From a bacterium (lineage in GTDB: Bacteria; Actinomycetota; Acidimicrobiia; Acidimicrobiales; CATQHL01): 64,000 nt of DNA. Shown piece after piece: positions 35,565-53,834 of the stretch. Within the stretch, counting starts at the first letter, position 1. Each line of letters starts with the position of its first letter. Where the stretch lies: the NCBI GenBank assembly GCA_026708055.1, contig JAPOVS010000039.1:1-64000 (forward strand), in the 5' to 3' direction. The position numbers were made by a program, and so were the translations under genes. Under the pieces are notes generated by a model. The model did no database searches. It saw nothing but the letters and a program-made list of their open reading frames with translations, and was not told the origin of the DNA.

Positions 35565-36047
35565 GTGATCGTTCGGATGGATACTCGACGCGGTAGTCGG
35601 CCGTCCCGTCAGCTGGGGCGAGGCACGAGGCAACCATCCCGTGCGCAGTCGGGAGGCACGTCGAGGCGGACGGATCGGAAGAGTGTTGTGGGCCGTAGCA
35701 CGCCTCCGCGCTCCGGGACTCGCCGCGACCTGACCGGTGGCGGCAAACGAAGGATTCCCCCAATCTCAGCTTTGCCGGTCCTGTTGGCGTTGGGGAGTTC
35801 GGCATTGCTCATTGCGTCGATCGTTCTGATGGTCACAGCAACCGACTCGCTCTCAACCCTCAGGCTGTCGTACGTGCTGGGCCTTGCCGGCTTCGCCGCT
35901 GCCGCGGTGGCCGACACCGTGCACAAGCGAAAATGTGATCGAGAGATGCGAAACGATCGATTTACCGCGGCAACGATGCTGTGGTTCGGTTCTTTGGTCG
36001 TCACTGTCATCAGCGCGTATCTTGCAGCTGGCGAGGCTGCACTCTGA
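35565..36047 (+). CDS. Three-helix membrane protein (operon gene 1)
   Basis: The 160-residue protein has an Arg/Ser-rich, probably disordered N terminus of ~65 residues and then three hydrophobic segments: ALPVLLALGSSALLIASIV, LSYVLGLAGFAAAAVA and MLWFGSLVVTVISAYLA. A charged loop (HKRKCDREMRNDRF) joins the second and third. GAGGAG precedes the GTG at 35565 closely; an ATG at 35577 is an alternative. No family was recognised. Its position at the head of the VWA-tubulin-STAND genes suggests a small membrane component of that system. Confidence 0.7.
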   Translation: MIVRMDTRRGSRPSRQLGRGTRQPSRAQSGGTSRRTDRKSVVGRSTPPRSGTRRDLTGGGKRRIPPISALPVLLALGSSALLIASIVLMVTATDSLSTLRLSYVLGLAGFAAAAVADTVHKRKCDREMRNDRFTAATMLWFGSLVVTVISAYLAAGEAAL

Positions 36048-36063
36048 AGCCAAGTCGCAGTTG

Positions 36064-39000
36064 GTGATCTTCTTGTGCTCTGCACGACGACCGGCTTTCA
36101 GCTTCGACGGCACGAGATCGCCGTCGAAGCTCAGATCGCGCGGCGGTCGTGCGGCTGTTTCGGTCCGGGGAGTGTCCGCGAGTTCGGCTATTGGACGAGC
36201 GGGTGCCGCGCTGTCGCTCATCGCCACGGCGTCTGTGCTGGGCGCGGTGCTCTTCGTAGTTCTTGCATTGCCCGTCAAAGCCGAGGAGTCTGCCCAGCGG
36301 TGCGATGGACGCGAGTCGATCCGCGTGCTTTTCCTTCTGGACACGTCGCGGAGTCTGCGCGTGAATGACCCCGACGGCCGGCGGGAGACAGGCACGGTGG
36401 ATGCGCTCGACGATCTGGGCCAGATCGTCGAAGACTACCGTCTGCGATTGCGGCGCCACTACCCACACTGGTCGGTCTTTGCGGCGGTTGACACGTTCTC
36501 TGGACTCCACGACGAACCCGAGTTGAACAATCCATACAACCGCCTAAGCGGCAGCTGGCAGGATCTGGGAGATCTAGGCGGTCTTCAAGCCCTGCGTCAA
36601 GCTGCGGGTCGCGCGCTCGAGCAGCCCGGATACTGGACTGACTACCGGGAGGCGATCCGCGGTGTGCTCGACCGCTTCGCTGAACCGTTGCCGAATGGGA
36701 TCCCTTCGTGTGACTATCTATTCTGGTTCACTGACGGCGATCACGACACAATTTCAGCAGGCGTTTCTACGCCGGCAGAGCAGGCACAGATCGATGATAT
36801 GTGCCGTGTCGGAGGCTTGGTCGATCAGCTGCGACGCACGGGCGTCAATGTCACCGCTATCGAACTCCGCGTGCAGCGGGACTCGTCGGCGCAACTCCGC
36901 CGCTTGGTGGTCGGCGGCCCCGACTGTGTAGGACTTGACGGGGAGGTCGCCGATGTCGCGTCCGTGGCGGATCTTGCGACCGGAATCGAGGAGACCGTAT
37001 TCCGCTTGGTCGATCCCGATTTCCCGCGCGAGTTCCTGGATCCATGCGAGTCGAATCCGGCGGAATGCGAATACCGCTTCACTCTCTCCGACGGCGTCGA
37101 GTGGGTGAAGGTCTACGTGGACCTTCGAGGAGTCAGGGACCGCTCCGACGTGTCGATTGCCCTCCACGGACCTGACGGGACTCCGATTGCTCCGTTCGCA
37201 TTCGGAGATGACTGGACCCGGATTTCAACGTCAGGAATGTTGGGCAGGCAACCGACCCGGAACATCAGTGTCGCCTGGGCGCATCGGGTCGCACGGCAGG
37301 TCTACGGCATGGAATGGGGAGATGATCAGGTCTGGACGCTCGTCTTCTCCGGCGCGGAGGCTGCGAACGCGCGCGCCGGAATCCGCAAGGACGAGCGCGG
37401 TGCCCCGACCCTCGAGGAGTTGCAGTTCAGCGGCAGCGACTTGAGGGGGAGAATCAATCCGGCGCCCAGTGAGGATGAGATGGCGCGGCTCGTCCTGCAT
37501 CTCGATGACGGGCGCAACGTCGAGGTCAGTGGGTTGGATGGCAGGATCAGGTCCGGCGGCCGGTTCACGATTCCTGGCATTGTCGATCGCGTGGCCCGCG
37601 CCGCGCGGGGCGACGATTACCTGCCGACACGGGGCTGCGTTGGGACAGCCGAGCTGTCGGTCAACAAGGTGGTCGACTACGGGAGCTTCAGCGGTCCTTG
37701 GACTGCGCCGCTGCGGGCATCGGTGGTCGAGGTCCCCGTTCCGAGAGCACTGTGTGGATTGTCCGGCCGAATGGTGCCGACGCTCAGGGCGATCGCCGCA
37801 GACCCGGCGGACCGGTTCGACCCGGCGGGAACACTGGCGATCACGGCGGACGGTGGATTCCTTGACGGGTTGCTGACCGTGACCGATGTGCACATCGAGT
37901 CTGTCTCGGGGTCATCATCCGTGGACTTCTCGCCCGAGTGGTCGAGCGGGTGGCGATGCGACGTTCCGGCCGATGCCGTCGACTACTCCTGCGGCGATGC
38001 CTTTCGGCTCACTGTGAATGCCGACTCCGACTCCGAGGTCGACATCAGGTTGTCCCTGTCTTCCATCAGCGCCGATCCGATGCAGGAGCCGCCGGTTGTG
38101 GAGAGGACCACATACATCATCCGGGACGTCCTGGTGGACGGCAAATTGCCGGGTCCGGTGATCGCCGCGGTAGACGAGAGCCGACCGGGCGGATTTCTGG
38201 ATGTCTCCGCTGACGGCGGTACCGCGGACGGAGTATTGGTGTTGGACGGGCTGATCGCGGAGTCCGTGAACGGTTCCGCCGAGGCGGCACCGCCGATCCT
38301 GAGTGTCGGGGACTGGCGGTGCGTGATCCCGGCTGGAGCGAGAGCGCAGACCTGCCCGCCGTTGCAGGTTCTCTCGGGTCTCGCTGCGGGAGACGTCGCC
38401 GTCGACGTGGTTCTGTCGATTCGAGGCCTTGTCGACGATCCGAATCATCCACAAGTCGCTCAAGACATGAGGGTGGTAGTTCGTGACATCATTGTGCCTT
38501 CGGCGCTGCCGGCCGTCTCCGATGTCGTGGTTGAAGATCGGTTCGATCCGTCGGGCTCGCTGCGAGTCATCACTCAGGGAGGGGTGTTCGCCGGCTCGGT
38601 GACCGTTGAGACCGCATCGGACGGCCTGCTGCCCGTCGAGTCCGTGGACGGCGTTACGCCGCGACTGCGGCCCGGCGCGGAGTGGCGCTGCGAGGTGCCG
38701 GCAGGTGCAGTGGACCATGTGTGCCCTACCATGGTGATCGAGGCGACCGCTGAAGGCGACGCGACGATGGATCTGATCGTGCCGTTGCGTGCAGCGGGCG
38801 GCGATCCGGCGACGGTTCCAGGATTGACTAGTTATGTGCGGGTCGAGGACATCTCGATCGGCGTGAGGGAGACGGGCGAAGTCCTCGAGCACTTCATGCG
38901 CTACCTACTGATAGCCGTGGCTGTGTTCTTGGCGGTCCGGGTGCTGTCGGCGGGGGTGCGGCGCCGCTGGACGAAGTTGTCCAACAATATGTACTTCGTC

Positions 39001-39618
39001 GCCGACGGCCGGGTCGAGGGCGATGTGATCGTGCCGGGTGCCCTGCAGGATCATCGCTGCCGCGAGCTTCGGCGATCTGTAGCGAAGGCGGAATTGAGCA
39101 AAGCCGATGTCGCGCTGCGAGTACCGTGGTGGCCCCTGCTCGCCGGCTGGCCGTTGCGGATCGTGGCGACGGCAAAGGGGCGAGGGCGCAGCATCGCTGC
39201 GAGCGGTCAGGTCGACACGGACGTGACCAGGTTCGCAATCCGGTCCGAGCCTGACTCCAGGACGGTCGGTCAAGCGCTGAACGGCGGATGGGTCATCGTC
39301 GAACGCGATCACAACCACTATCAGCTGGTGTTGTGGGACGGACCCCGGGATGAGAAGGAACTGCTGGCGACCGTGGAGAGGATCTGGCGCGAGTTCGAGC
39401 GGCGGCCGCGGAACCGGGAGCCGTCCGACCCGAGCCGGCAGAGTCTAGCCCAGAGCGAGCCGCAGGCACCGCCCACGGGGGCCTTAAGGGACAGTCCAAA
39501 TGGCTGCCCGGACGAGCAGGACGAGCAGGACGAGCAGGGTCCGCCCGCGTCTCCGGGCCTGTCCCGCCGAAGGCAGCGACCACCGAAGGAGCCTGAGGCC
39601 CGGACGGGGCGCGCCTGA
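36064..39618 (+). CDS. Membrane-anchored VWA protein with three Cys-paired repeats (operon gene 2)
   Basis: From the GTG at 36064 the protein has 1184 residues; a GTG at 36172 is also possible. Order: basic N terminus, membrane segment or signal (about 50-70), a von Willebrand factor A domain with MIDAS residues DTSRS (93-97) and FTDGDHD (222-228), a beta-rich region, three tandem ~120-residue repeats (37780-38860) each with WRC...C and a DRFDP/GGF start, a second membrane helix (945-963) and a ~220-residue cytoplasmic tail ending in a low-complexity DEQ run. The VWA and repeats should face outside. Ligand binding through the metal site is inferred. It starts 17 nt after gene 1. Confidence 0.82.
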   Translation: MIFLCSARRPAFSFDGTRSPSKLRSRGGRAAVSVRGVSASSAIGRAGAALSLIATASVLGAVLFVVLALPVKAEESAQRCDGRESIRVLFLLDTSRSLRVNDPDGRRETGTVDALDDLGQIVEDYRLRLRRHYPHWSVFAAVDTFSGLHDEPELNNPYNRLSGSWQDLGDLGGLQALRQAAGRALEQPGYWTDYREAIRGVLDRFAEPLPNGIPSCDYLFWFTDGDHDTISAGVSTPAEQAQIDDMCRVGGLVDQLRRTGVNVTAIELRVQRDSSAQLRRLVVGGPDCVGLDGEVADVASVADLATGIEETVFRLVDPDFPREFLDPCESNPAECEYRFTLSDGVEWVKVYVDLRGVRDRSDVSIALHGPDGTPIAPFAFGDDWTRISTSGMLGRQPTRNISVAWAHRVARQVYGMEWGDDQVWTLVFSGAEAANARAGIRKDERGAPTLEELQFSGSDLRGRINPAPSEDEMARLVLHLDDGRNVEVSGLDGRIRSGGRFTIPGIVDRVARAARGDDYLPTRGCVGTAELSVNKVVDYGSFSGPWTAPLRASVVEVPVPRALCGLSGRMVPTLRAIAADPADRFDPAGTLAITADGGFLDGLLTVTDVHIESVSGSSSVDFSPEWSSGWRCDVPADAVDYSCGDAFRLTVNADSDSEVDIRLSLSSISADPMQEPPVVERTTYIIRDVLVDGKLPGPVIAAVDESRPGGFLDVSADGGTADGVLVLDGLIAESVNGSAEAAPPILSVGDWRCVIPAGARAQTCPPLQVLSGLAAGDVAVDVVLSIRGLVDDPNHPQVAQDMRVVVRDIIVPSALPAVSDVVVEDRFDPSGSLRVITQGGVFAGSVTVETASDGLLPVESVDGVTPRLRPGAEWRCEVPAGAVDHVCPTMVIEATAEGDATMDLIVPLRAAGGDPATVPGLTSYVRVEDISIGVRETGEVLEHFMRYLLIAVAVFLAVRVLSAGVRRRWTKLSNNMYFVADGRVEGDVIVPGALQDHRCRELRRSVAKAELSKADVALRVPWWPLLAGWPLRIVATAKGRGRSIAASGQVDTDVTRFAIRSEPDSRTVGQALNGGWVIVERDHNHYQLVLWDGPRDEKELLATVERIWREFERRPRNREPSDPSRQSLAQSEPQAPPTGALRDSPNGCPDEQDEQDEQGPPASPGLSRRRQRPPKEPEARTGRA

Positions 39619-39650: not shown

Positions 39651-42600
39651 ATGTTGAGTCCAGTAATCATGATCGGCTGCGGTGGGTCTGGCTCCAAGGC
39701 GATTCGCTATGTGAGATACGCCGTCAAGCGGAAGCTTCACACAGCAGGCTGGCCAGACGATATTCCCGCTGCGTGGTCGTTCATTGGAGTCGACGCCCTG
39801 AGCAAGCAAGAGGGTGGGGATGCCGACGAGATTCCGGACCTGCCCAAGGATGATTTTGTACAGATCACCAAGGGGCTCAGCGACTACTCGATGCTGAACG
39901 AAGCGCTCCTGACCATGTATCCGACGAATGATCCCTCGTATCAACATCTCATCGGTTGGCGTCCCGATCCGGATCAGGTGCAAATCGCCGTTGAGATGGG
40001 CTGCGGCCAGATCCGCACCATCGGGCGAGCCGTCGGTCTGTATACACTTCAACGCAGCCTAGGTAAGAGGATAAGCGATGCCTTTGATCGTGCTCAGGCT
40101 GGCTCGGGACTCAAGGAGGTTTCGGCCACGCTGGGGAAGACCCGATCAACCCAATCAAGTGGAGATCAGACGGATAAACCGCCGCTTGTCGTGGTCTGTG
40201 CGTCACTTGGGGGAGGGACCGGGGCTGGGATCGCTCTCGATGTCATTGATATGTTGCGACGGACAAGTGATTATGGTAAGGACACAATTCTCGTTCTATT
40301 CAGTATCGACATCTTCGGCAGGTCCGCGAGAGATATGGCGGGAAACTCGCTTGCCATGCTGTCCGAAGTCCTTGCCTCGTATTGGAAGATGCCGAGTGAG
40401 CCCGGAGCAGGAGACGTCTTTGGACAGCTGGAGGGCAGGCCGGGTCATGGGCCAAAGGCGATCTTCGTAGTCGGCTCGCAGAGCATGCAGGGCGCGACAA
40501 TTGGCAGTTCGAAGCGTGACGCGGACAACCTGGCTGTGACGGCTTATCGGTCTGTCGGAGAGGTGCTGTCCACTTGGGTCGTCGATGAGAGTGTTCAAGA
40601 GTTAGCTTCGCATTATTTGGCGACGAATTGGGCAAATCAGCAACGCAAAACGCCGGGCGGTTATGGCTTCGGTGCCAAGGAGCAGCAACCCGGCATGGTG
40701 TCGTCCTTCGGGGCGGCGACTATCACCCTCGGTCGCGAGTATTTCAGTGCTTGGGCAGCTGATCTTCTGGCGCGCCAGACGATCGGTGAACTCGTTGAAG
40801 GTCACCTTAGGAGCGATCAGTCTGGCACGGGTGGTGACGAGCGTACTGACTCCGAAAGAATCCTGCACCTAGCCGAACGGAACTTGTGGAGGCTGTTCGA
40901 TGCCAAGGATCGAACGAATCGCGAGCACCGCGCTGATTCGCCTGTGGATGTTCCGAGCCTATACGACGAGATTATCAGCCACGCCGATGCATCCGCTGTC
41001 GAGAGCAAATTCCGGGAACCGCTCAGCTATAGCGACGAGCTACCAGGCCGAGAGTGGCAGAGCAATATTCATCAAGAGTTGAATCGTATCTGGGAGTGGG
41101 TTGGAGAGCAGGGCTCTCGGTCGATCGACTACGATAAGTTGAATAGCGTCGCAAAGTCTTTCCCCCAAGCGGTGTGTCAAGCCGTCACCGAGATCATCGC
41201 GGATACCTCGATTCCTGTGGCCATCGAAGTGCTAAAGCAGGCGAAAGCGCAGGCAGCGTCGTATGTTGAAGAGCGACTGTCAGCCACAGTGCGAAACTAT
41301 GATGAGTGTGAGAAGCGTTACGACGATGTCCGAAGTCGACTCAATACGAGACGCAAACTGAAGTACACACATGACGACTGTGCGGTGTGTGTGGATGCCG
41401 CAGTGAGCTATCTGGAAGCCCTTTGGGACGAGAGACGGCACTGGGAGATCAAAGGCGTGATTGATTCAGCGTGCAATAATGTCTACGAGGAGATCATTCG
41501 CGGCCTATCAAGGGATTTGCGGGTGCTCGCGGAGAACATGCGTAAGGAACCGGTCAAGAGTTGGCCGAATGATGCAAGCGATCGGCCGGTATCCTACTTG
41601 CCCGGGCCCCTAGAATTTGCGCTCGAAGATCCGGAATGCTGGCCCGGGATGCTTGAATCTATCTGCAAAAGACTCGACGGCTATAGGCCGGGTCGAGATC
41701 CGCTGGACATGGCGCGGCGCGTGCTCATCCGAGGCTGCGAGGATGGAGAGATCGATCTTCCTGCTGGACTTAGACACAGTTCAGGCGATAGGGGATGGTT
41801 TCCATCAGACGGATCGCTCATCACAATTACGTCCGAATTGGTCGGCGATAGGATTGTGAATCGCACTAGGACTCTCATGAACTTGCGAGCATTTCGAGGG
41901 GTGATTGACGAAGGGTTGAGACAGTACCTTGGGGATCCCCAGAAAGGGGACCATACGAATCGGCTGAAGAGATTCGAGACATGCTTGGGGGATGCGCTTA
42001 GCCTGTCGCTTCCGCTGGTGCAGCTTGACAAGGATCTCTGTCAGAAGTTATACAACGATAAGGCAGGTCCGGAGGCGGTCAATCGCGTGTGCTCGGCCTT
42101 CCCATTTGATGCCGGGCATCCAGCCTTTGATATTGCTAAGACCGCTCTGGGGGATCACTATCGGCGGGTGAGCGCTGGCGATCCGCCATCAGTGATGATT
42201 TCATCGGTTATGGAGTATCCGGTTCATCCGATCGCCGTCAGCTCGCTCATGCACCCCATCGCCGAAGCCGTGCAGCGCTGCAAAACAGCCGACAGCCTGC
42301 AGGCTGACTTCTGGAACTGGCGCCGGGGTAGGACACTCCCTTCATTTATCCCTGTACCGGCCGAGGTGCGGCGCGCACTGATATGCGGTTTCGCGATAGG
42401 GAGGATGTGCGGCTATGTCACGGCTGACACCAAGAAGGCGGTGAAGATCAGCGGGACCCCGAAAGCTCTCGGTTCGAGCGAGACTGTGACCTTTCCGTGG
42501 CCGTTGTTGTCTGAGGTAAGGGATCCCCGTTGCCTGCTGCCAGCGCTTCTGGAGTCGTTTGTTCTATGCATTGCCAAGGCAGCCGCTGATCATGAAGCGG

Positions 42601-42992
42601 CCTTCGAGCCGTATGCGCGGCTGTATGATCTCGGCAAGGACCTTGAAGATGCCCAGAACTCCGAACTGCATTCCCTTATCAGGAACGGCGACGTACCGAG
42701 GGCACAGGTTGATGAGCCGAAGGTGCGAGGCCATGACGAATGTGAAAGGATGACGGCAGCCGAGAATTATCTCAAGCCCCAGATCGAATTTCTCAAGCAG
42801 CTTGAAGTCGAGCCCTTCAAGGGCGATGAGTGGTGCACCAGCAAGGGTATAGGGAGTGAAGCTGCATTTCAGAGCGAAGGCGCGTCAAGTCTGGTGCCTG
42901 TACGCGAGCTGCTGCCAGAAATGAGGGAATGCTTCGAACACATCCTTAGTTCGCTAAGGAAGGACAGAAGGGCGGAAGGCTATGACATCTGA
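39651..42992 (+). CDS. Large tubulin/FtsZ-superfamily protein (operon gene 3)
   Basis: The ATG at 39651 is preferred over 39645 because AAGGAG then lies 7 nt upstream; the product has 1113 residues. The N terminus MLSPVIMIGCGGSGSK has the first nucleotide-binding loop, and residues 186-193 read LGGGTGAG, the tubulin/FtsZ signature that contacts GTP phosphates. SFIGVDALSK and FVVGSQSMQ fit the Rossmann-like core. The remaining ~800 residues are mostly helical and unrecognised, three times the size of FtsZ. It resembles the poorly studied tubulin-like families of bacteria rather than FtsZ or TubZ. Whether it polymerises is unknown. No signal or membrane helix is seen. Confidence 0.85.
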   Translation: MLSPVIMIGCGGSGSKAIRYVRYAVKRKLHTAGWPDDIPAAWSFIGVDALSKQEGGDADEIPDLPKDDFVQITKGLSDYSMLNEALLTMYPTNDPSYQHLIGWRPDPDQVQIAVEMGCGQIRTIGRAVGLYTLQRSLGKRISDAFDRAQAGSGLKEVSATLGKTRSTQSSGDQTDKPPLVVVCASLGGGTGAGIALDVIDMLRRTSDYGKDTILVLFSIDIFGRSARDMAGNSLAMLSEVLASYWKMPSEPGAGDVFGQLEGRPGHGPKAIFVVGSQSMQGATIGSSKRDADNLAVTAYRSVGEVLSTWVVDESVQELASHYLATNWANQQRKTPGGYGFGAKEQQPGMVSSFGAATITLGREYFSAWAADLLARQTIGELVEGHLRSDQSGTGGDERTDSERILHLAERNLWRLFDAKDRTNREHRADSPVDVPSLYDEIISHADASAVESKFREPLSYSDELPGREWQSNIHQELNRIWEWVGEQGSRSIDYDKLNSVAKSFPQAVCQAVTEIIADTSIPVAIEVLKQAKAQAASYVEERLSATVRNYDECEKRYDDVRSRLNTRRKLKYTHDDCAVCVDAAVSYLEALWDERRHWEIKGVIDSACNNVYEEIIRGLSRDLRVLAENMRKEPVKSWPNDASDRPVSYLPGPLEFALEDPECWPGMLESICKRLDGYRPGRDPLDMARRVLIRGCEDGEIDLPAGLRHSSGDRGWFPSDGSLITITSELVGDRIVNRTRTLMNLRAFRGVIDEGLRQYLGDPQKGDHTNRLKRFETCLGDALSLSLPLVQLDKDLCQKLYNDKAGPEAVNRVCSAFPFDAGHPAFDIAKTALGDHYRRVSAGDPPSVMISSVMEYPVHPIAVSSLMHPIAEAVQRCKTADSLQADFWNWRRGRTLPSFIPVPAEVRRALICGFAIGRMCGYVTADTKKAVKISGTPKALGSSETVTFPWPLLSEVRDPRCLLPALLESFVLCIAKAAADHEAAFEPYARLYDLGKDLEDAQNSELHSLIRNGDVPRAQVDEPKVRGHDECERMTAAENYLKPQIEFLKQLEVEPFKGDEWCTSKGIGSEAAFQSEGASSLVPVRELLPEMRECFEHILSSLRKDRRAEGYDI

Positions 42993-45756
42993 GCAAGCCA
43001 TGTTGACGATCTGCGCTAGCGCTGCGGTCGAGCGTGTGGATCAGCTGCTCGCGTCATGGACGAGATCGCATCTGGTGAAGAACGTAGCCGTGTCTTCTCC
43101 TAGAGAGATGGCAAAAAGTGGTCCTAAGGCCGCCTGCACGTACTACGACTCAGGGGATGAGAACGCGATTAGTGAGATGCAGCTGACCGAGGTCTTGGGC
43201 CGCCAGCCTGCGGGCACCAGAGTCACCTTGGCGGTGTTTCGAGATGGAGCAGACGACCACGGCGATGCAGATGAACGTTGGAGGGAGAGCATTGAATTGG
43301 AGAAGTCGGCAAGACGTTGCCTCGAAGACGTCTTGGAGCGGAGGGTTGTCCGTAAGAGCATCACGGTTGGTGTATATGACTATCCGTGCCCCGTGGAAGC
43401 GTTTTCCGCCGATTGGGATCAACACTTGGTGCACGACAGGGTAGTTCTTCAGCTGCCTATGAGAGTCTTGAAACTTGGCACCGGTGACCTTTCGGGCCTC
43501 TGTGCGATGATGGCATTGTCTGCTGGTGGTAGCTGGGCCTTCAGTGATGGTGCGGTATTGAACTCGACATATGATGACCAAAAACAGCGGGCGAGACAGT
43601 GGGGTGCGGTGCGCATCGTTCGACCGGAGATTCGTATTGTGACCGTCGGATCGTTGGACGCAGAGATCGCAGAGGTGACGGATCGAAATTTCGTCGAAAA
43701 ACCTCCATGGCCTCTCCCATGCGATGAACCGGTCCGTTCATCGAGCAATGATCCGTTCACCAGTGTGCCCAAGGAGATCGCGCTGCCCAAGACTAGCGTC
43801 TCGGAACTGGTGAGGACGTGTGGGTTTGATGTTGATGAAATCGTGGAGTACCGCGAGTGCAATCAGTTCAGGCTTGAGCTTCGTGACGCGTTGTTCAGCA
43901 TGAACGTGGCGACGCTTGTCCGGATGCATCTGAGGGAATGGATTGCGGTATCGCAGGAGGACATTAGCGAGGCTGAGGCGGTCGTTGACGCGATCGATCG
44001 TTTCGACCATCGAGTGACGAATCTAGAAGCTGCTGTCGCGGCGCTGCGCAAGGCCAACGTGGCGGACCTCGAGCTGGGAAGGGATGTCGCGCGCCGCGCT
44101 CGGGAGCCGTGGAAAAAGATGCGCGAGTTCTTTTTCAGCCTGGTCGACGGTGGCGACTTGCCGCCGGGTGTGTCGCCGCTGAACCCGCCTGTGGACGCGC
44201 GGCCCGACCAGATGCCCGTTTGGTCAGACCCGTCGGCCCTTGCGCCCGCTCCAGATCGACCGCTCGATCCCTTCGATCTCGTTGGACTTGACCGGGCAAT
44301 TGTGGATCGCCTGGGCGTCCGATGCATTCATCCGTTGGACGTACTGCATGCGCCCAGACTCGACTCCATCATCACACGCGAAGAGGATCCATTTCCGTAT
44401 CTGACTGACGGTCTGCGCCCCGACCTCAGGGGCAAAATCGCCCCCGAGATTCGCGATAGGTGGATAGAGTGGCGAGATACGTGGTGGTCCACTCCTCTGG
44501 GAGAGTTGTCGAATATGCTCGGCAGCGCGATCGAGCGCGCGTACGGCAACTTCGTAGAATCTGTAAAGGCAATTAAGCAGATCAAGACTGACCGCTATGT
44601 CGTTGAACAGTACTCGTTCAACCATCGGCCATTCACCGCTTGCTTGCTTACGTTCTTGAGTGCGGCGGGGCTCTTGGCGTGGCGACTGCTCGGCAATGGT
44701 GGACCGGTTCCAGAAAGCGGAAGCGGATTTGTTGGCACGGTCATACTCTGTGGAGTTCTGCTTCTACTGCTGCACATTTGCTACCGAAGAGAGCTTAAGC
44801 TGATCGATCAATCAGAACTCTCTTCGAGAGAATTTCTGGATGAAGTTCAGCGAGTGCAGCACCACGCGCTTGAGGTGGCACGCCTGCATGGACTTGGCCG
44901 AGCCTTCATGGACCACCAAAGAGTTGCACGCGTACTGCTTTACGAACCCTTTGGGATCGGGGGGATCGAAGCAGAGACTGTGACGTCATCTGAGGACGCC
45001 AGCAAGCGATTCGCGAATCTTGGACCGCCCTCTGTTCTCTGTGGCTCTTCGACGCTGAGCGATGAACAGAGAGAGGCGCTTGCGAGGCTTGACAGGGACG
45101 ATGTTTATCGAAGAGGCTGGCTCACTACGGCACATACGGAGATGACCGAGTCCTGGAAGCAGGCTTTCTCCACACTCATCGGATCGGAGCATTTTGCGAT
45201 GCCTGATGACGACTATCTACCCCCGGACGAGGTCCCCTATCAGGATTCGACAGAGCAAAGGTTGCCAGGCCCGCGCCAGCACTTTCGCGAATCAATTGAG
45301 CGAGATGCGGGACTGCGGACGAACGGACGTCTCCAGATCGTTAAGGATTTGGCACAGCTGGCACGCGGTGCCGTGCAGCAAGTTGAGGAGTTGGGCTCGA
45401 TCAAGGTAGAGAGGTATCCTGAGTTGTCAGGATTGGCTAGTGACTTCGTTACATTCGCTGGCTCGGAACTTTCATCGGTTGAATTCGATCCCAGCATGCT
45501 TGAGTTCATGGAGCCCGTCTCTGTGGACGAGAGCTGTAGCATTGGTTCGGTCAGTGCGTTCCGGATCCAAGCCGATGGACTATCGCAGCCGGCCTTCGTT
45601 TCTTGGCGCATGCTGGTCTCGAAAGCATGTTTGGCTGCCGGGCTGCGGTGCGTCGCAGATGAGAACAAGCGACGAGAAGATGAGAATAGCCGACGATCGT
45701 TCGAGACGCAGACATCGCGACAACCGACGGAAGTTCTCCAAGTGCCCGAGATCTAG
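42982..45756 (+). CDS. Unrecognised 924-residue membrane protein (operon gene 4)
   Basis: No family was recognised. The gene overlaps the tubulin-like gene by 11 nt, so both are probably made together. The soluble N-terminal half (about 1-545) is mixed alpha/beta and contains DRVVLQLPMRVLKLGTGDLSG and helical segments around 300-390. Two membrane helices follow, PFTACLLTFLSAAGLLAWRLL (about 548-568) and VGTVILCGVLLLLLHICY (about 583-600), so both large soluble parts should lie on the same side, likely the cytoplasm. The C-terminal third is helical and ends in a charged tail. It may link the cytosolic tubulin-like and STAND proteins to the membrane. Confidence 0.75.
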   Translation: MTSEQAMLTICASAAVERVDQLLASWTRSHLVKNVAVSSPREMAKSGPKAACTYYDSGDENAISEMQLTEVLGRQPAGTRVTLAVFRDGADDHGDADERWRESIELEKSARRCLEDVLERRVVRKSITVGVYDYPCPVEAFSADWDQHLVHDRVVLQLPMRVLKLGTGDLSGLCAMMALSAGGSWAFSDGAVLNSTYDDQKQRARQWGAVRIVRPEIRIVTVGSLDAEIAEVTDRNFVEKPPWPLPCDEPVRSSSNDPFTSVPKEIALPKTSVSELVRTCGFDVDEIVEYRECNQFRLELRDALFSMNVATLVRMHLREWIAVSQEDISEAEAVVDAIDRFDHRVTNLEAAVAALRKANVADLELGRDVARRAREPWKKMREFFFSLVDGGDLPPGVSPLNPPVDARPDQMPVWSDPSALAPAPDRPLDPFDLVGLDRAIVDRLGVRCIHPLDVLHAPRLDSIITREEDPFPYLTDGLRPDLRGKIAPEIRDRWIEWRDTWWSTPLGELSNMLGSAIERAYGNFVESVKAIKQIKTDRYVVEQYSFNHRPFTACLLTFLSAAGLLAWRLLGNGGPVPESGSGFVGTVILCGVLLLLLHICYRRELKLIDQSELSSREFLDEVQRVQHHALEVARLHGLGRAFMDHQRVARVLLYEPFGIGGIEAETVTSSEDASKRFANLGPPSVLCGSSTLSDEQREALARLDRDDVYRRGWLTTAHTEMTESWKQAFSTLIGSEHFAMPDDDYLPPDEVPYQDSTEQRLPGPRQHFRESIERDAGLRTNGRLQIVKDLAQLARGAVQQVEELGSIKVERYPELSGLASDFVTFAGSELSSVEFDPSMLEFMEPVSVDESCSIGSVSAFRIQADGLSQPAFVSWRMLVSKACLAAGLRCVADENKRREDENSRRSFETQTSRQPTEVLQVPEI

Positions 45757-45987
45757 TTGCTTGGCGGACTCCACCAGTGGAGTGCGGGCGCAACCCCACC
45801 GCGGTCGGCGTGCGCGGCCAGCAACGACACCTCGCCGTCTCCGCTCAACGAGGCCAGCAACACTCCGCCCGCTTACTCCTCGCCTACGACCCTCTAACGC
45901 CGTGGAACCAACCATCTTCGACAAGCGAGCGCCGCGCCGCTGGTACGCACGAATTCGCCGCGGCGGCCGGACTGGAAGGAACAGTGC

Positions 45988-48900
45988 ATGAGCAAAATGT
46001 CGAACAAAGCGGAGAGGGGCTCGACACATGGCCTTTCGATGGGGTCACAGGACCTGGTCAGGGGAGGTGCGTGCAAGCCCTCTGGTGATGAGAAGAGAGA
46101 GTTGGTCGGTCGATCTCGAATTCTCTTGGTCGATGGCTTAGAAGCGATTTATGATGATGTCTTGAAGAGCAAATGCTGCTCGTGGGTGTCTCTAGAGGGC
46201 CCGTCGGGCTGGGGCAAGACGCGCGTTGTACACGAGTTATTCAAACGCCTGTCCAAGCGCCAAGAGCAGCCGCGGTACTGGCCTGATGTTATCGATGATC
46301 CCACCTTGGGCCGGAAAGCTGCACAGCCGCTATTCACGAGGACCGGTAATTCTTTGCCAGAGTTTTTGTGGTGGGGGATAGGATGCTCAACTAGCGTAGG
46401 ATTGGGGACGCAGGCTCTAGAGCGCGACGTTAAGCGGTTGTACGAGCATCGTACGTTTCTGAAGAAAGCTCGTCAAGGGCTGATTTCGCGTGGACAGTCG
46501 GTGCGAGAGACGTTCGCGCAGCGTACGCACAGCATTGGCCGAGCGGTGAAAGAGGAGGGTAGTATTGAGGCCATTTCTTACTTTGTCCAGGAGGCTGCAG
46601 GCGCGGTAATTCCTGGAAGCGGCTTGGTCTACAAGGCAGCACAACTGGGCGTCGCTGCCGGAAGGCGCAAATTGCAGCAGAGCAGGGAGGTTGCCTCTGA
46701 GACGACATTCGGTGAGGAGCGTTCTAAGGACCTCGTTGATGAAGTCGTCTACTTCCTCGGCAGCTTCACTGCGGTGGGCTTTCCTCTCGTCATATTTGTC
46801 GAAGACGCACACGCAGCCGATGACGGAGTTGTTGAACTGCTCGGCAAAGTGTTGAGCCGCGGGGGTACGGTGTTTGCCATTACGACCTCATGGCCGGACT
46901 TTGCGGCCAGGAACCCTGCCCTAGATGAACTCATGAGTGAATATGAGGGGCGCTTACACCGCGTGGGGCACACGAGCTCTGCCGGGGAACCGTTCCCCGA
47001 AGGATCAGGGCTATGCGAACTCGAATATGGTGCTCGGAGAACAATACTTCACCATCATTATGGACGAGTCGAGAAAGAGACAGAGAAATTTCTATTGGAA
47101 CGCTTTGTGAATCCCTTGGCTCTAAACTTGTTCTGCGAAGTAGGCAAGTATCGTAGGGACGAGGAGTATCGTACTCGTGATGGCGCACTGTGCCTTCCGC
47201 CCAAGGAACGAGATAGCGTTCCAACGAGTATTCGCGAACTCTACCGTGATCTCTGGAGGGAATTGTCTATCGAGACGCAATTTGCCTTGGCGGTCGCGTA
47301 TATTCTGACTCCAGCCAACATCGATTCGGCTGTCGCCAAGAATGAAGACGTATGGATGGACAGGTTGCTGATAGAAGTGATTGAGCGTTTCGAGAATCTT
47401 GAGGATCCGAATATTGGCGACGTCGTGGACGCACTCGCCAAAGCGCCGACCGCGAACGCGTGGGTCCGAATAGTCGATGATTATCTGCGTGCGTTCTCGG
47501 AGGAAGATCAAAAGGCTATTGTCAATGAGGATGGCGGCGGAGTGTTGAATGATCGGTTGGACGACCCGAGCGGACAGATACTCGCCAAATTGACGGATAT
47601 TTTGCTGAGTGCAGACAGCGACGTTAGGTGCACGATAAACGGTGCCCGGAGTATCTTGGCACTGCACGCGGTAGGAAATATCACTGATCACGGGATGGTT
47701 GCAGAAGCCATTTGTTTGCTGATGGAGGACCTCGAAAGTAACCTGCGAGAACTCCCCGAGCGCCTCCGCCTCTTTGAGATATTTGGAGATTTGGACCCTC
47801 GACCACTAAGCAGTATTACCACCTTCAAGCTCCGCCAGTGTGGAGCGTGGGCGCTCGCCGAGGCGGGGAAGACCGGCGAGGCCATCACAGTATGCGAAGA
47901 CTTGCTAAACGAGCAAGTTGGGGAGTTGGGCACCGAGCACCCTAGCACTCTCGATACCCGGCGGATCCTCGCAGGCAGGCTTGCTGAGGCGGGGCGACTC
48001 GAGGAGGCCATAACCGAACTTGAGAATGTGCTGACGGAGAGTGAACAGGTGTTGAAGCCCGGACATCCCGACACGCTGCGGATACGCCATAACTTGGCCG
48101 GTTGGGTCGGATCGGCAGGGCGCGTCGAAGAGGCGGTCGATCGGTTCAGGGCTGTGTTGGAGGATCGGTCGCGTGTCTTGGGCGCGGACGACCCGCAGAC
48201 GCTGCATACTCGTCACAACCTTGCGTACTGGCTAGGCAGGGCGGGAGGCATTGATGAGGCCGTTCGAGCGTACGAAGAACTGCTGGTGGATCGGTCGCGT
48301 GTCTTGGGTGTTGACCACCCCAGCACTCTGGACACTCGCAACAATCTGGCGCGTTGGGTTGGTGAGGCGGGGCGCGTCAAGGAGGCAATCGATGAGTTCG
48401 AGGCTGTGTTGGAGGGTCGGCGGTGGGTCTTGGGTGCTGACCACCCCCACACACTCGTAACCCGGGACTATCGGGCGCGTTGGTTGGGGGAGGCGGGGCG
48501 CGTGGAGGAGGCGATCGGGCAGTTCGAGGCTGTGTTGGAGGATCGGCGGCGGGTGTTGGGCGCGGATCACCCCCACACACTCGTAACCCGGGGCAAGTTG
48601 GCGCGTTGGTTGGGGGAGGCGGGGCGCGTGGAGGAGGCGATCGGGCAGTTCGAAGCTGTGTTGGAGGATCGGCGGCGGGTGTTGGGCGATGACCACCCCC
48701 ACACGCTGCTAACTCGCCACAATCTGGCGCACTGGGAAGGTAAAGCGGGGTTTGTCGAAAAGGCCGTTACCGCCCTTGAAAGGGTATGGGATGACCGGGT
48801 ACGTGTGCTGGGACCGAAGGATCCCGACACTCTGTTTACTCGTCATGTGCTGGGGGGCTGGCTCGGCGAGGCTGGGCACGTGGAGGAGGCCGTCAGAGCC

Positions 48901-49266
48901 AACAGAGAACTGTTGGACGATCGGTCGGCGGTTTTGGGGCGCGACAATCCCGACACATTGGATACCCACCATAACCTGGCGTACTGGCTTGGTGAGGCGG
49001 GGCGCGTCGATGAGGCGATCGATGAGTTCGCGGCACTGTTGGAGGATCGGCTGCGGGTATTGGGCACCCACCATCCCCACACGCTCGCAACCCGCTACAA
49101 CCTCGCGCGCTGGCTCGTTACGGCGGGACGTGCTGACGATATGGTTACAGCATATGCCGAGGTTATGGGAGATGAGTCGAGTGAGACGGCGCGCGACCAA
49201 CTTGACCGGCTGAGCACTTGCCAAGACCTGACGGGCTGGCTCGGTGAGGCGGGCCGCGCCGAGTGA
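45988..49266 (+). CDS. STAND-type P-loop ATPase with C-terminal TPRs (operon gene 5)
   Basis: The ATG at 45988 follows GGAAGGAAC. The 1092-residue protein has Walker A GPSGWGKT (71-78), Walker B LVIFVEDAHAAD (about 267-278) and a winged-helix-like region (about 400-480), the layout of STAND switch ATPases. From about residue 615 come eleven 42-residue TPRs with the consensus HPxTLxTRxNLAxWLGEAGRV, like kinesin-light-chain TPRs, plus a partial twelfth. STAND proteins hold an inactive ADP state and assemble when their sensor repeats bind a trigger. A 231-nt gap separates it from gene 4 and holds nothing recognised, so an own promoter is possible. No separate effector domain is seen. Confidence 0.85.
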   Translation: MSKMSNKAERGSTHGLSMGSQDLVRGGACKPSGDEKRELVGRSRILLVDGLEAIYDDVLKSKCCSWVSLEGPSGWGKTRVVHELFKRLSKRQEQPRYWPDVIDDPTLGRKAAQPLFTRTGNSLPEFLWWGIGCSTSVGLGTQALERDVKRLYEHRTFLKKARQGLISRGQSVRETFAQRTHSIGRAVKEEGSIEAISYFVQEAAGAVIPGSGLVYKAAQLGVAAGRRKLQQSREVASETTFGEERSKDLVDEVVYFLGSFTAVGFPLVIFVEDAHAADDGVVELLGKVLSRGGTVFAITTSWPDFAARNPALDELMSEYEGRLHRVGHTSSAGEPFPEGSGLCELEYGARRTILHHHYGRVEKETEKFLLERFVNPLALNLFCEVGKYRRDEEYRTRDGALCLPPKERDSVPTSIRELYRDLWRELSIETQFALAVAYILTPANIDSAVAKNEDVWMDRLLIEVIERFENLEDPNIGDVVDALAKAPTANAWVRIVDDYLRAFSEEDQKAIVNEDGGGVLNDRLDDPSGQILAKLTDILLSADSDVRCTINGARSILALHAVGNITDHGMVAEAICLLMEDLESNLRELPERLRLFEIFGDLDPRPLSSITTFKLRQCGAWALAEAGKTGEAITVCEDLLNEQVGELGTEHPSTLDTRRILAGRLAEAGRLEEAITELENVLTESEQVLKPGHPDTLRIRHNLAGWVGSAGRVEEAVDRFRAVLEDRSRVLGADDPQTLHTRHNLAYWLGRAGGIDEAVRAYEELLVDRSRVLGVDHPSTLDTRNNLARWVGEAGRVKEAIDEFEAVLEGRRWVLGADHPHTLVTRDYRARWLGEAGRVEEAIGQFEAVLEDRRRVLGADHPHTLVTRGKLARWLGEAGRVEEAIGQFEAVLEDRRRVLGDDHPHTLLTRHNLAHWEGKAGFVEKAVTALERVWDDRVRVLGPKDPDTLFTRHVLGGWLGEAGHVEEAVRANRELLDDRSAVLGRDNPDTLDTHHNLAYWLGEAGRVDEAIDEFAALLEDRLRVLGTHHPHTLATRYNLARWLVTAGRADDMVTAYAEVMGDESSETARDQLDRLSTCQDLTGWLGEAGRAE
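47833..49266 (+). repeat. 126-bp tandem repeats encoding TPRs
   Basis: The coding repeats have a 126-bp period. Units near 48475-48562 and 48601-48688 agree at all but one of 88 positions, far closer than the other units, which shows a recent duplication or gene conversion in the TPR array. Confidence 0.85.
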
Positions 49267-51357: not shown

Positions 51358-51363
51358 TAGCCT
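51358..51363 (+). promoter_or_regulatory. -10 box TAGCCT for the ppk transcript
   Basis: TAGCCT lies 54 nt before the ATG at 51418, consistent with a short leader containing the ribosome-binding site GGAAGGAG at 51401-51408. Confidence 0.4.
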
Positions 51364-51417
51364 TGAGGCAGGGATCGCCTCGATGCCGAGTTCGCCGGGG
51401 TGCCGGAAGGAGTGTTC

Positions 51418-51717
51418 ATGACAAGCATCGGGCTCGACTACGAGCAGGAACTGCCGCCGCCCATCGGCCACGTCAAGGTCGTCTACATGGGTCCCGTCGC
51501 GCCGCACTGGGAGTTCCGGTCGGACTTCGGCGACAGGCAACTCATCGAGGACTTCCGTATGCGCGCGCAGGCGAGGCTGCTGCTGCTGCCCAGGGACGAC
51601 CCTCAGTTCCGCCGCAACCGGGAGCGGATCAATCGGGACGGCGTGCGCCAGAACCTCCTGATCGAATGGGACCTCGGCTACGACGAGGACGAGTTCGATC
51701 CCTACAGCGAGCCCTGA
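51418..51717 (+). CDS. Small protein of unknown function before ppk
   Basis: The 99-residue protein has no signal or membrane segment. It contains HVKVVYMGPVAPHWEF, a basic middle (FRMRAQARLLLL, RRNRERINRDG) and an acidic end (DLGYDEDEFDPYSEP). GGAAGGAG precedes the ATG. No family was recognised. The ppk start follows 11 nt after its stop, so it is co-transcribed with polyphosphate kinase and may be linked to it. Confidence 0.7.
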   Translation: MTSIGLDYEQELPPPIGHVKVVYMGPVAPHWEFRSDFGDRQLIEDFRMRAQARLLLLPRDDPQFRRNRERINRDGVRQNLLIEWDLGYDEDEFDPYSEP

Positions 51718-51728
51718 GGGGGAGACAG

Positions 51729-53834
51729 GTGCTCATCGGCGCGCCCATCGAGATCTCATCGCCTGCCACGAGTGTGACGACCGGCGAAGACTCGGACGCG
51801 GCCGGCCGCTACCTGAACCGCGAGCTCTCCTGGCTGGACTTCGATGCCCGGGTGCTGCATCTGGCGCGTGATGAGAGCATCCCGCTGCTGGAGCGGCTCC
51901 GCTTCTGCGTCATCGCCGCCGGGAACCTGGACGAGTTCTTCCAGGTGCGGGTGGCGAGCCTCAAGGCGCGCATGGCCGAGGGCCGGCTGGAGCGTTCCGT
52001 GGACGGGTTCACGCCGCAGGCGCAGCTCGCCGGCATCCATGCCCGGGTGGAGAAGCTGCTTGCGGGCCTCGAGAGCGTTCTCCGCCACCAGATCCTCCCC
52101 ACGCTGGCGACCGAGGGAATCCAGGTCGTGGACTGGAGCGATCTGGACCTGGATGACCGGAAGTTCCTGGAGGGCGAGTTCGCCGACCGGATCTACCCCA
52201 TCCTGACGCCCCTGGCGGTGGATCCCGGCCATCCCTTCCCGTACCTCTCGAACCTGTCCACGAGCCTCGGCGTGCGGCTCGTGGATCCCGGCAGCGGCCG
52301 GCACTGCTTCGCCCGGATCAAGGTGCCGTTCACCTACGGGAGGCTGCTGAGCCTCCCCGACGGCGAGCGCTTCATCCCCATCGAGCAGGTCATCTCGGCG
52401 CATCTCGAGGCGCTCTTCCCGGGCATGGAGGTCTTGGAGCACGCCTGCTTCCGGGTGACGCGCAACGCCGACCTGTCCGTCGACGATCAGGAGGCCGAGG
52501 ACCTGCTGACGGCGGTGGAGGCCGAGCTGCAGAGGCGCCGGTTCCGCGCCGTGGTCCGTCTGGAGATGTCGGCGTCGGCCTCGGTGGCGATGCGCAACCT
52601 GCTGATGGACGAGTTGGACGTTCTGCCCGACGACGTCTACTCCACGGATCTCCTGCTGGACGTCGAGGGTCTGGCCCAGTTCTGCCGCCTCAAGCGTCCC
52701 GACCTGCTGTGGCCGCAGCGCCACCAGTTCGTGCCAGCCCCGCTGCGGCCCACCGGCGAGGGCACGCCGGACTTCTTCGCCGCCATCCGCAACGCCGACG
52801 TGCTGGCACACCACCCCTACGACTCGTTCGGCGCCTCGGTGCAGGAGTTCATCCACCAGGCGGCGGAGGATCCCGACGTGCTGGCCATCAAGATGACCCT
52901 CTACCGCACCGACGGCGACGGCGACATCGTGGAGGCGCTCATCTCGGCCGCCGAGAGGGGCAAGCAGGTGGCGGTGGTCGTGGAGCTGAAGGCCCGCTTC
53001 GACGAGCAGGCCAACATCGGCTGGGCGCGGCAGCTGGAGAACGCCGGGGTGCATGTGGCCTACGGGCTGGTGGGGCTGAAGGTGCACGCCAAGATCTGCC
53101 TGGTGGTGCGCGCCGAGCCCGACGGGATCCGGCGCTACTGCCACGTCGGCACCGGCAACTACAACGCCCTCACGGCCCGGACTTACGAGGACCTGGGGCT
53201 GCTGACCGCGGACGAGGACATCGGCGCCGACCTCTCGCACCTGTTCAACCGGCTCACCGGTTACGGCCACGGGTTCACCTACAGCGAGCTCGTGGTGGCC
53301 CCCGAAGCGGTCCGGCCGCACATGGCCGAACTCATCGCCGCCGAGGCCGCGCACGGGGACCGGGGCCGCATCGTGCTCAAGATGAACAGCCTCGTGGACG
53401 CCGAGATGATCGACGCCCTGTACGCCGCCTCGTCAGCCGGGGTCCGCATCGACCTGCTGGTGCGAGGGATCTGCTGCCTGCGCCCGGGTGTGCCGGGCCT
53501 GTCGGAGACCGTCAGCGTGCGGTCGGTGGTCGGCCGCTACCTGGAGCACTCGCGCATCTACTGCTTCGGCAACGCCAACGGCGTGGGACGGCCGGTGTAC
53601 CTCATCGGCTCGGCCGATCTGATGCCCCGCAACCTGAACAGCCGCGTCGAGGCCCTCGTGCCCGTGCACGACCCGCGGCTGCAGGCCCGGCTGCAGCAGA
53701 TCCTGGATACGAGCCTCGCAGCGCGGGCACGGGCCTGGACCCTGCGCTCCGACGGCGCCTGGGCCCCGCCGCGCCCGGGCACCGTCTCGCCTCACGACAC
53801 CCTGCACGACATCCCCGGCGTTCCCGCAGCCTGA
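51729..53834 (+). CDS. ppk: Polyphosphate kinase 1
   Basis: The 701-residue protein shows all four PPK1 domains: RYLNRELSWLDFDARVLHLA at the N terminus, the head domain, and two phospholipase D-like domains. The autophosphorylated His453 is in GLKVHAKICL, followed by RYCHVGTGNYN; IKMTLYRTDGDGDIV and the later LIGSADLMPRNLNSRVE complete the active site. It makes polyphosphate from ATP reversibly. The GTG at 51729 follows GGGGGAGA. It sits just before the pst operon, so storage and uptake of phosphate lie together. Confidence 0.95.
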   Translation: MLIGAPIEISSPATSVTTGEDSDAAGRYLNRELSWLDFDARVLHLARDESIPLLERLRFCVIAAGNLDEFFQVRVASLKARMAEGRLERSVDGFTPQAQLAGIHARVEKLLAGLESVLRHQILPTLATEGIQVVDWSDLDLDDRKFLEGEFADRIYPILTPLAVDPGHPFPYLSNLSTSLGVRLVDPGSGRHCFARIKVPFTYGRLLSLPDGERFIPIEQVISAHLEALFPGMEVLEHACFRVTRNADLSVDDQEAEDLLTAVEAELQRRRFRAVVRLEMSASASVAMRNLLMDELDVLPDDVYSTDLLLDVEGLAQFCRLKRPDLLWPQRHQFVPAPLRPTGEGTPDFFAAIRNADVLAHHPYDSFGASVQEFIHQAAEDPDVLAIKMTLYRTDGDGDIVEALISAAERGKQVAVVVELKARFDEQANIGWARQLENAGVHVAYGLVGLKVHAKICLVVRAEPDGIRRYCHVGTGNYNALTARTYEDLGLLTADEDIGADLSHLFNRLTGYGHGFTYSELVVAPEAVRPHMAELIAAEAAHGDRGRIVLKMNSLVDAEMIDALYAASSAGVRIDLLVRGICCLRPGVPGLSETVSVRSVVGRYLEHSRIYCFGNANGVGRPVYLIGSADLMPRNLNSRVEALVPVHDPRLQARLQQILDTSLAARARAWTLRSDGAWAPPRPGTVSPHDTLHDIPGVPAA

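What the first reader, a model, noticed from the sequence alone, without database searches (positions are those of the whole stretch)
39651..42992. Giant tubulin-superfamily protein
Residues 186-193 read LGGGTGAG and the N terminus has IGCGGSGSK, the two nucleotide loops of the FtsZ/tubulin fold, yet the protein is about three times the length of FtsZ and is encoded outside any division or plasmid-partition context. About 800 helical residues with no recognised domain follow the GTPase core.
Basis: partly seen in the sequence, partly recalled or inferred. Interest (0 to 1): 0.7.

Follow-up and report, generated by a model that had tools for sequence, protein, structure and literature searches.

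The report
Membrane-linked giant bacterial tubulin relative
The gene encodes a known but barely studied bacterial relative of tubulin that sits in a conserved operon with an outward-facing adhesion-type (vWA) membrane protein and a second membrane protein; its predicted structure is a complete tubulin interrupted by a 400-residue helical insert, and the membrane neighbour may be a degenerate second tubulin.

Summary
In detail: the ORF, its start (39651) and the two quoted loops are as stated. The protein belongs to a known family, FtsZl1 / Pfam Tubulin_2 (110.9 bits, cut-off 27), described in 2010, in which about 1000-1200 residues is the usual length. It is not without context: it is the central gene of a conserved cassette (small 3-TM protein, bitopic extracytoplasmic vWA protein, FtsZl1, membrane partner) shared with dozens of actinobacterial loci and separate from the genome's own ftsZ. 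The downstream membrane protein's model also ranks tubulins first (Z 8-9.4, borderline), and in a sister lineage the gene in that position is a sequence-recognisable FtsZl1 paralogue (HHalign 97%). T7-region acids are not conserved. Most likely mechanism: GTP-dependent assembly on the membrane, coupled to an extracytoplasmic vWA sensor. Polymerisation and function are untested.

The parts
35565..36047 (+). small protein with about three TM segments, first gene of the cassette (start codon uncertain)
   Evidence: ORF with hydrophobic segments at 64, 101, 133; a small multi-TM ORF precedes the vWA gene in 34 of 51 loci against 12 of 260 random anchors; no Pfam match
35884..39618 (+). P0003, bitopic extracytoplasmic vWA protein (ORF; the true start is probably near 36.1 kb)
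   Evidence: homologues with N-terminal hydrophobic segment, MIDAS motif and one late TM; family profile finds solved vWA domains; the protein itself has no significant Pfam match
36340..36354 (+). vWA MIDAS motif DTSRS (P0003 residues 153-157)
   Evidence: D153, S155, S157 invariant in 19 homologues
38902..38958 (+). single late TM of P0003, followed by about 220 aa of presumed cytoplasmic tail
   Evidence: hydropathy, positive charge on the C-terminal side
39651..42992 (+). FtsZl1 / Tubulin_2 protein, 1113 aa
39672..39692 (+). T1 nucleotide loop IGCGGSG
   Evidence: glycines invariant in 69 of 69 homologues
39999..40028 (+). T3-like loop GCGQIRTIGR (family GAGQxRAVGR)
   Evidence: HHalign pairs it with the FtsZ segment GAGxxPEVG; G, G and Q invariant
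40203..40229 (+). T4 signature loop SLGGGTGAG
40824..42044 (+). about 400-residue helical insertion within the tubulin fold (borders inferred)
   Evidence: secondary structure of the model and VIA-align ranges
42045..42599 (+). second tubulin domain and following helices, about residues 800-985 (borders inferred)
   Evidence: CetZ alignments end at 884-887, tubulin alignments at 974-985
42982..45756 (+). P0002, membrane partner, 924 aa, overlaps FtsZl1 by 11 nt; possible degenerate tubulin
   Evidence: same family in 54 loci; VIA-align Z 8-9.4 to tubulins; no sequence support in this lineage
44614..44787 (+). TM hairpin of P0002 (about residues 545-602)
   Evidence: hydropathy; mid-protein TM segments in homologues and long helices there in the model
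45988..49266 (+). AAA_16 + TPR protein after the cassette; association not established
   Evidence: Pfam and NCBIfam matches

Best explanation
The gene encodes a cytoplasmic FtsZl1 (Tubulin_2) protein with a complete tubulin fold: GTPase domain, a helical insertion of about 400 residues, then the second tubulin domain. It is part of a membrane-bound complex made by one operon. Shown by sequence or model: family membership, intact T1, T3 and T4 nucleotide loops, two-domain tubulin fold, conserved cassette, vWA domain with intact MIDAS motif, TM segments. Inferred: GTP binding; self-assembly, or co-assembly with the membrane partner, along the inner face of the membrane; and coupling of the extracytoplasmic vWA domain, through its TM and cytoplasmic tail, to that assembly. 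An outside metal- or ligand-sensing domain would thus control a cytoskeleton-like scaffold, loosely as integrins do with actin. Output would come from linked effectors that vary by lineage (trypsin-like protease, AAA/TPR protein, GAP1 proteins).
For: Pfam match and loops; model and fold matches; order vWA - FtsZl1 - TM protein in nearly all loci; MIDAS and vWA profile; distances of the three proteins correlate at r 0.91-0.96 over 46 loci, which shows co-inheritance only; separate ftsZ in the genome.
Against: No experiment. T7-region acids are not conserved, so tubulin-type hydrolysis may be absent. No complex was modelled. The two 2010 and 2020 genome-context papers are themselves predictions.
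Confidence: 0.5

Rival explanations
1. The locus is a biological-conflict (defence or self-recognition) system as proposed by Kaur et al. 2020: tubulin and vWA form a thresholding platform that holds effectors in check until an invader or a damaged envelope is sensed. This is compatible with the best explanation at the level of mechanism and differs in purpose.
For: Kaur et al. place actinobacterial tubulin plus membrane vWA genes in GAP1-N2 systems; GAP1-N2 follows the cassette in Mycobacterium and Corynebacterium loci; patchy distribution; trypsin-like or AAA/TPR neighbours; lower G+C over 40-48 kb.
Against: No GAP1-N2 in this genome; no PADLOC hit to the three core proteins.
Confidence: 0.35
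2. FtsZl1 is a non-polymerising GTP-dependent switch or scaffold: the helical insertion and loss of T7 acids have ended tubulin-type polymerisation.
For: T7-region acids not conserved; large insertion between the domains; the 2010 authors left open that it forms no filaments.
Against: The second domain, needed for tubulin-type longitudinal contacts, is retained, and the nucleotide loops are invariant.
Confidence: 0.3
3. Membrane remodelling or vesicle biogenesis machinery, as Makarova and Koonin proposed.
For: TM-rich operon; their genome-context argument.
Against: No remodelling domain is recognisable in the cassette; the trypsin and AAA/TPR neighbours are not explained.
Confidence: 0.2

Closest known systems
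FtsZl1 family / Pfam PF13809 Tubulin_2 (Makarova and Koonin 2010, PMC2875224)
   Same: N-terminal FtsZ-like domain, helical remainder, about 1000-1200 residues, vWA gene next door, TM-protein neighbours
   Different: Here the model shows the second tubulin domain after a helical insertion; the 2010 paper saw no similarity to tubulin C-terminal domains. Kinase, P-loop GTPase and OmpA partners of their operons were not seen in the cassette itself.
Tubulin-containing GAP1-N2 GTPase-centric conflict systems (Kaur et al. 2020, PMC7159879)
   Same: Actinobacterial tubulin with helical region plus membrane-bound vWA protein; homologous cassettes in Mycobacterium and Corynebacterium are followed by GAP1-N2 genes
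   Different: No GAP1-N2 in this genome; an AAA_16/TPR gene follows instead; acidimicrobial relatives have a trypsin-like protease
CetZ (best fold match) and tubulin/BtubAB
   Same: T1, T3 and T4 loops and two-domain fold, Z 20-22.7
   Different: About 12-15% identity in the structural alignment, ~400-residue insertion, T7 acids not conserved
Canonical FtsZ
   Same: T1, T3 and T4 loops and fold
   Different: Scores 10.8 bits against a 295 cut-off; the genome has its own FtsZ on another contig

Membership tests
FtsZl1 / Tubulin_2 | Pfam PF13809 score over the gathering cut-off | tested here: met
   110.9 bits, cut-off 27
FtsZl1 / Tubulin_2 | T1 and T4 loops of the FtsZ-tubulin superfamily | tested here: met
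   invariant glycines in 69 homologues
FtsZl1 / Tubulin_2 | about 1000 aa: FtsZ-like domain, coiled coil, helical C-terminal region | tested here: met
   1113 aa; long helices 496-633 in the model; but a second tubulin domain lies within the C-terminal region
FtsZl1 / Tubulin_2 | vWA gene in the same operon | tested here: met
   P0003 with MIDAS, vWA profile match
Tubulin/FtsZ superfamily (fold) | two-domain tubulin fold | tested here: met
   CetZ Z 22.7, rmsd 4.0, 312 of 360 residues, on a predicted model
Tubulin/FtsZ superfamily (catalysis) | T7-loop catalytic acid | tested here: inconclusive
   no acidic position in 306-331 above 53%; exact T7 position is inferred
Canonical FtsZ (TIGR00065) | score over the equivalog cut-off | tested here: not met
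   10.8 bits, cut-off 295.2
GAP1-N2 GTPase-centric conflict system | GAP1-N2 gene | tested here: not met
   no PF20013 match in the own genome, 96% complete
GAP1-N2 GTPase-centric conflict system | tubulin plus membrane-bound vWA protein | tested here: met
GAP1-N2 GTPase-centric conflict system | FNIII-repeat proteins | tested here: inconclusive
   P0003 has beta-rich repeats but no Pfam match
Plasmid segregation tubulin (TubZ) | TubR/centromere partner on a plasmid | not tested
   no dedicated search; neighbours include polyphosphate kinase and a succinate-dehydrogenase-type flavoprotein, chromosomal in character

The most novel reading that the evidence does not exclude
The cassette is a two-tubulin transmembrane machine. 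FtsZl1 is the active GTPase subunit. The downstream membrane protein is a degenerate tubulin that has lost its nucleotide loops and carries a transmembrane hairpin inside its own insertion, so that the pair makes a membrane-anchored heteropolymer or ring governed by an outside vWA sensor. In the sister order of G653 the equivalent protein still has a glycine-rich T1 loop (GLGEFG / GLGDFG) and aligns to FtsZl1 at HHalign 97%, E 7e-11, against 0.2 for the reversed control. In this window the link rests on fold ranking only (Z 8-9.4).
Probability: 0.4. Interest if true: 0.75.

Novelty: new member of a known kind. Interest (0 to 1): 0.5.

Why it matters
FtsZl1 proteins occur across bacteria and archaea, and I found no experimental study of one in the library searched. 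If they are complete tubulins with a helical insertion, working with a membrane-embedded second tubulin and an external vWA domain, they would be a bacterial case of a cytoskeletal GTPase linked directly across the membrane to an outside sensor. The model turns this into a defined structural and biochemical test, and a culturable laboratory host (C. glutamicum) carries the family.

Tried and rejected
Chance motif: rejected. Giant size as unusual: rejected, it is the family norm. No context: rejected. Single-protein scan of genome contigs found nothing; the alignment scan found 75 loci. Sequence detection of the second tubulin domain: HHalign of residues 640-1010 or 340-400 plus 795-1010 against 30 FtsZ sequences gave nothing, so it rests on the model. 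A first FtsZ alignment was built in wrong frames and replaced. Sequence link between P0002 and tubulins: HHalign E 0.38, about the same as the reversed control; single sequences likewise. P0002 by Foldseek: no hit below E 0.16. Pfam for P0002 and P0003: no significant match. PADLOC: nothing for the three core proteins, weak sub-threshold hits for the AAA/TPR neighbour. Search with P0002 alone in 119 class genomes found only its own genome, a limit of single-sequence sensitivity. Literature search for GAP1-N2 follow-up found only the 2020 paper; only two papers name PF13809. Promoter and terminator scans were at shuffle level.

Full report
Observation. The ORF is real. Pfam Tubulin_2 (PF13809) matches residues 8-379 with 110.9 bits, cut-off 27. 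TIGR00065 FtsZ gives only 10.8 bits. The genome (87 contigs, 96% complete; the closest named relatives of the gene come mostly from Acidimicrobiia MAGs) has a single Tubulin_2 gene and a separate canonical ftsZ on contig 67.

Family. This is FtsZl1, described by Makarova and Koonin in 2010 (PMC2875224; [quoted passage not shown] They could not identify T6-H7 or T7, nor a tubulin C-terminal domain. A 2023 survey likewise sets Tubulin_2 proteins apart because they lack FtsZ_C and Tubulin_C domains (PMC9871819). Homologues are patchy: 8 of 198 genomes in the order and 21 of 395 in the class by protein search, 10 of 296 in the phylum by Tubulin_2 search, with open frames mostly about 1030-1290 residues.

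Nucleotide loops. In 69 non-redundant homologues the T1 glycines, D50, G119, G121, Q122, S187, the T4 glycines, F224 and N234 are invariant. HHalign against 30 actinobacterial FtsZ sequences aligns GAGQxRAVGR with the FtsZ segment GAGxxPEVG (T3) and aligns the T4 loops (E 0.005 for the single comparison; alignment shown). By position I infer that N234 in the next helix corresponds to the H6 asparagine of tubulins. The loop and helix after S6 and H7 (about residues 311-322) should be T7/H8; no acidic position there exceeds 53%, so a conserved catalytic acid is not shown.

Fold. The AlphaFold model from 22 homologues has pLDDT 81.9 and pTM 0.77. Foldseek finds CetZ, gamma-tubulin and FtsZ (E 1.5e-4 to 1e-3, probability 1.00). 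VIA-align gives CetZ Z 22.7 with 312 of 360 residues aligned (model range 4-884), CetZ2 313 of 334, and tubulins Z 20-21 with ranges reaching 974-985. An alignment that covers 87-94% of CetZ must include its second domain, so the model has both domains with roughly 400 residues inserted between them. From the order of elements I place S7 at 355-361 and H9 at 364-393, the insertion near 394-800, then S8 812-816, H10 826-838 and S9 849-856. The borders are inferred, since VIA-align reports only outer ranges. Sequence profiles do not detect the second domain.

Operon. Upstream lies P0003, with an N-terminal hydrophobic segment, a MIDAS motif (DTSRS at 36340-36354), a beta-rich stretch, one late TM and a cytoplasmic tail of about 220 residues. 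Ten columns, among them the three MIDAS residues D153, S155 and S157, are invariant in 19 homologues, and the profile finds solved vWA-bearing chains including calcium-channel alpha-2/delta at weaker E-values. Downstream and overlapping by 11 nt is P0002 with a TM hairpin in the middle. The order vWA - FtsZl1 - TM protein recurs in nearly all loci examined. The partner forms one family in 54 of 63 entries (a few loci are duplicates of one genome). A small protein with about three TM segments precedes the vWA gene in 34 of 51 loci, against 12 of 260 random anchors. Sequence distances of the three proteins correlate at r 0.91-0.96 over 46 loci: the cassette is inherited together, which shows co-inheritance and not interaction.

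Partner. P0002 has no Pfam match and no sequence similarity to tubulins. Its model (pLDDT 73, pTM 0.60) has no significant Foldseek hit, but in VIA-align nearly all of the top 50 rows are tubulins or BtubB, Z 8.0-9.4, about 230-260 residues, spanning 6-908. That is only just above the usual background of 7-8, so it is a lead. It gains weight from a sister lineage (G653, G759 and relatives): there the gene in the same place, also with a mid-protein TM hairpin, begins with a T1-like loop (GLGEFG, GLGDFG). One member matches Tubulin_2 at E 5.7e-4, below the cut-off, and the small family aligns to FtsZl1 at HHalign 97%, E 7e-11, with 0.2 for the reversed control. That family does not align to P0002 above its control, so orthology of the two partners is inferred from position and TM layout. 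In a cyanobacterial locus the downstream protein is a vWA domain joined to a second FtsZl1-like region. Kaur et al. report two tubulin genes in the Firmicutes systems but one in actinobacteria. I therefore give 0.4 to the reading that P0002 is a degenerate, membrane-anchored tubulin.

Function. Kaur et al. 2020 (PMC7159879) place actinobacterial tubulin plus membrane vWA genes in GAP1-N2 conflict systems. GAP1-N2 follows the cassette in Mycobacterium and Corynebacterium loci but is absent from this genome. Acidimicrobial relatives carry a trypsin-like protease after the cassette, and the window carries an AAA_16/TPR protein. I file the protein under FtsZl1, and the locus as a vWA/FtsZl1 operon that fails the GAP1-N2 test. 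The most likely working is a GTP-dependent scaffold on the inner membrane face controlled by the external vWA domain; polymerisation, GTP hydrolysis and the biological role are untested.

Noticed in passing
window 40001-48000: G+C drops to about 56-57% against about 67-73% in most of the window (64% at 36-40 kb), covering FtsZl1, the partner and the AAA/TPR gene: suggests horizontal acquisition.
   Followed up: no
window 45988-49266: AAA_16 protein with about nine very similar TPR repeats; scores 301.7 against a cut-off of 300 for NCBIfam FxSxx_TPR (FxSxx-COOH system), so only just over.
   Followed up: partly
L053:16405-17367, L054:12431-13354, L058:15480-16541, L072:16190-17302: A trypsin-like peptidase (Trypsin_2) gene directly follows the cassette in several acidimicrobial loci; one partner protein in alignment A2 itself carries a Trypsin_2 domain.
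   Followed up: partly
L123:6283-10251 (Cyanobacteria bacterium M5B4): The protein after FtsZl1 is a vWA domain fused to a second FtsZl1-like region (VWA E 1.4e-38; Tubulin_2 E 0.011; HHalign E 4.4e-8).
   Followed up: partly
L076:18800-22777 (Patulibacter minatonensis): A DUF4062 + AAA_16 protein lies downstream of the cassette, a parallel to the window's AAA_16/TPR neighbour.
   Followed up: no
window 51363-53834: Polyphosphate kinase gene with all four Pfam domains.
   Followed up: no
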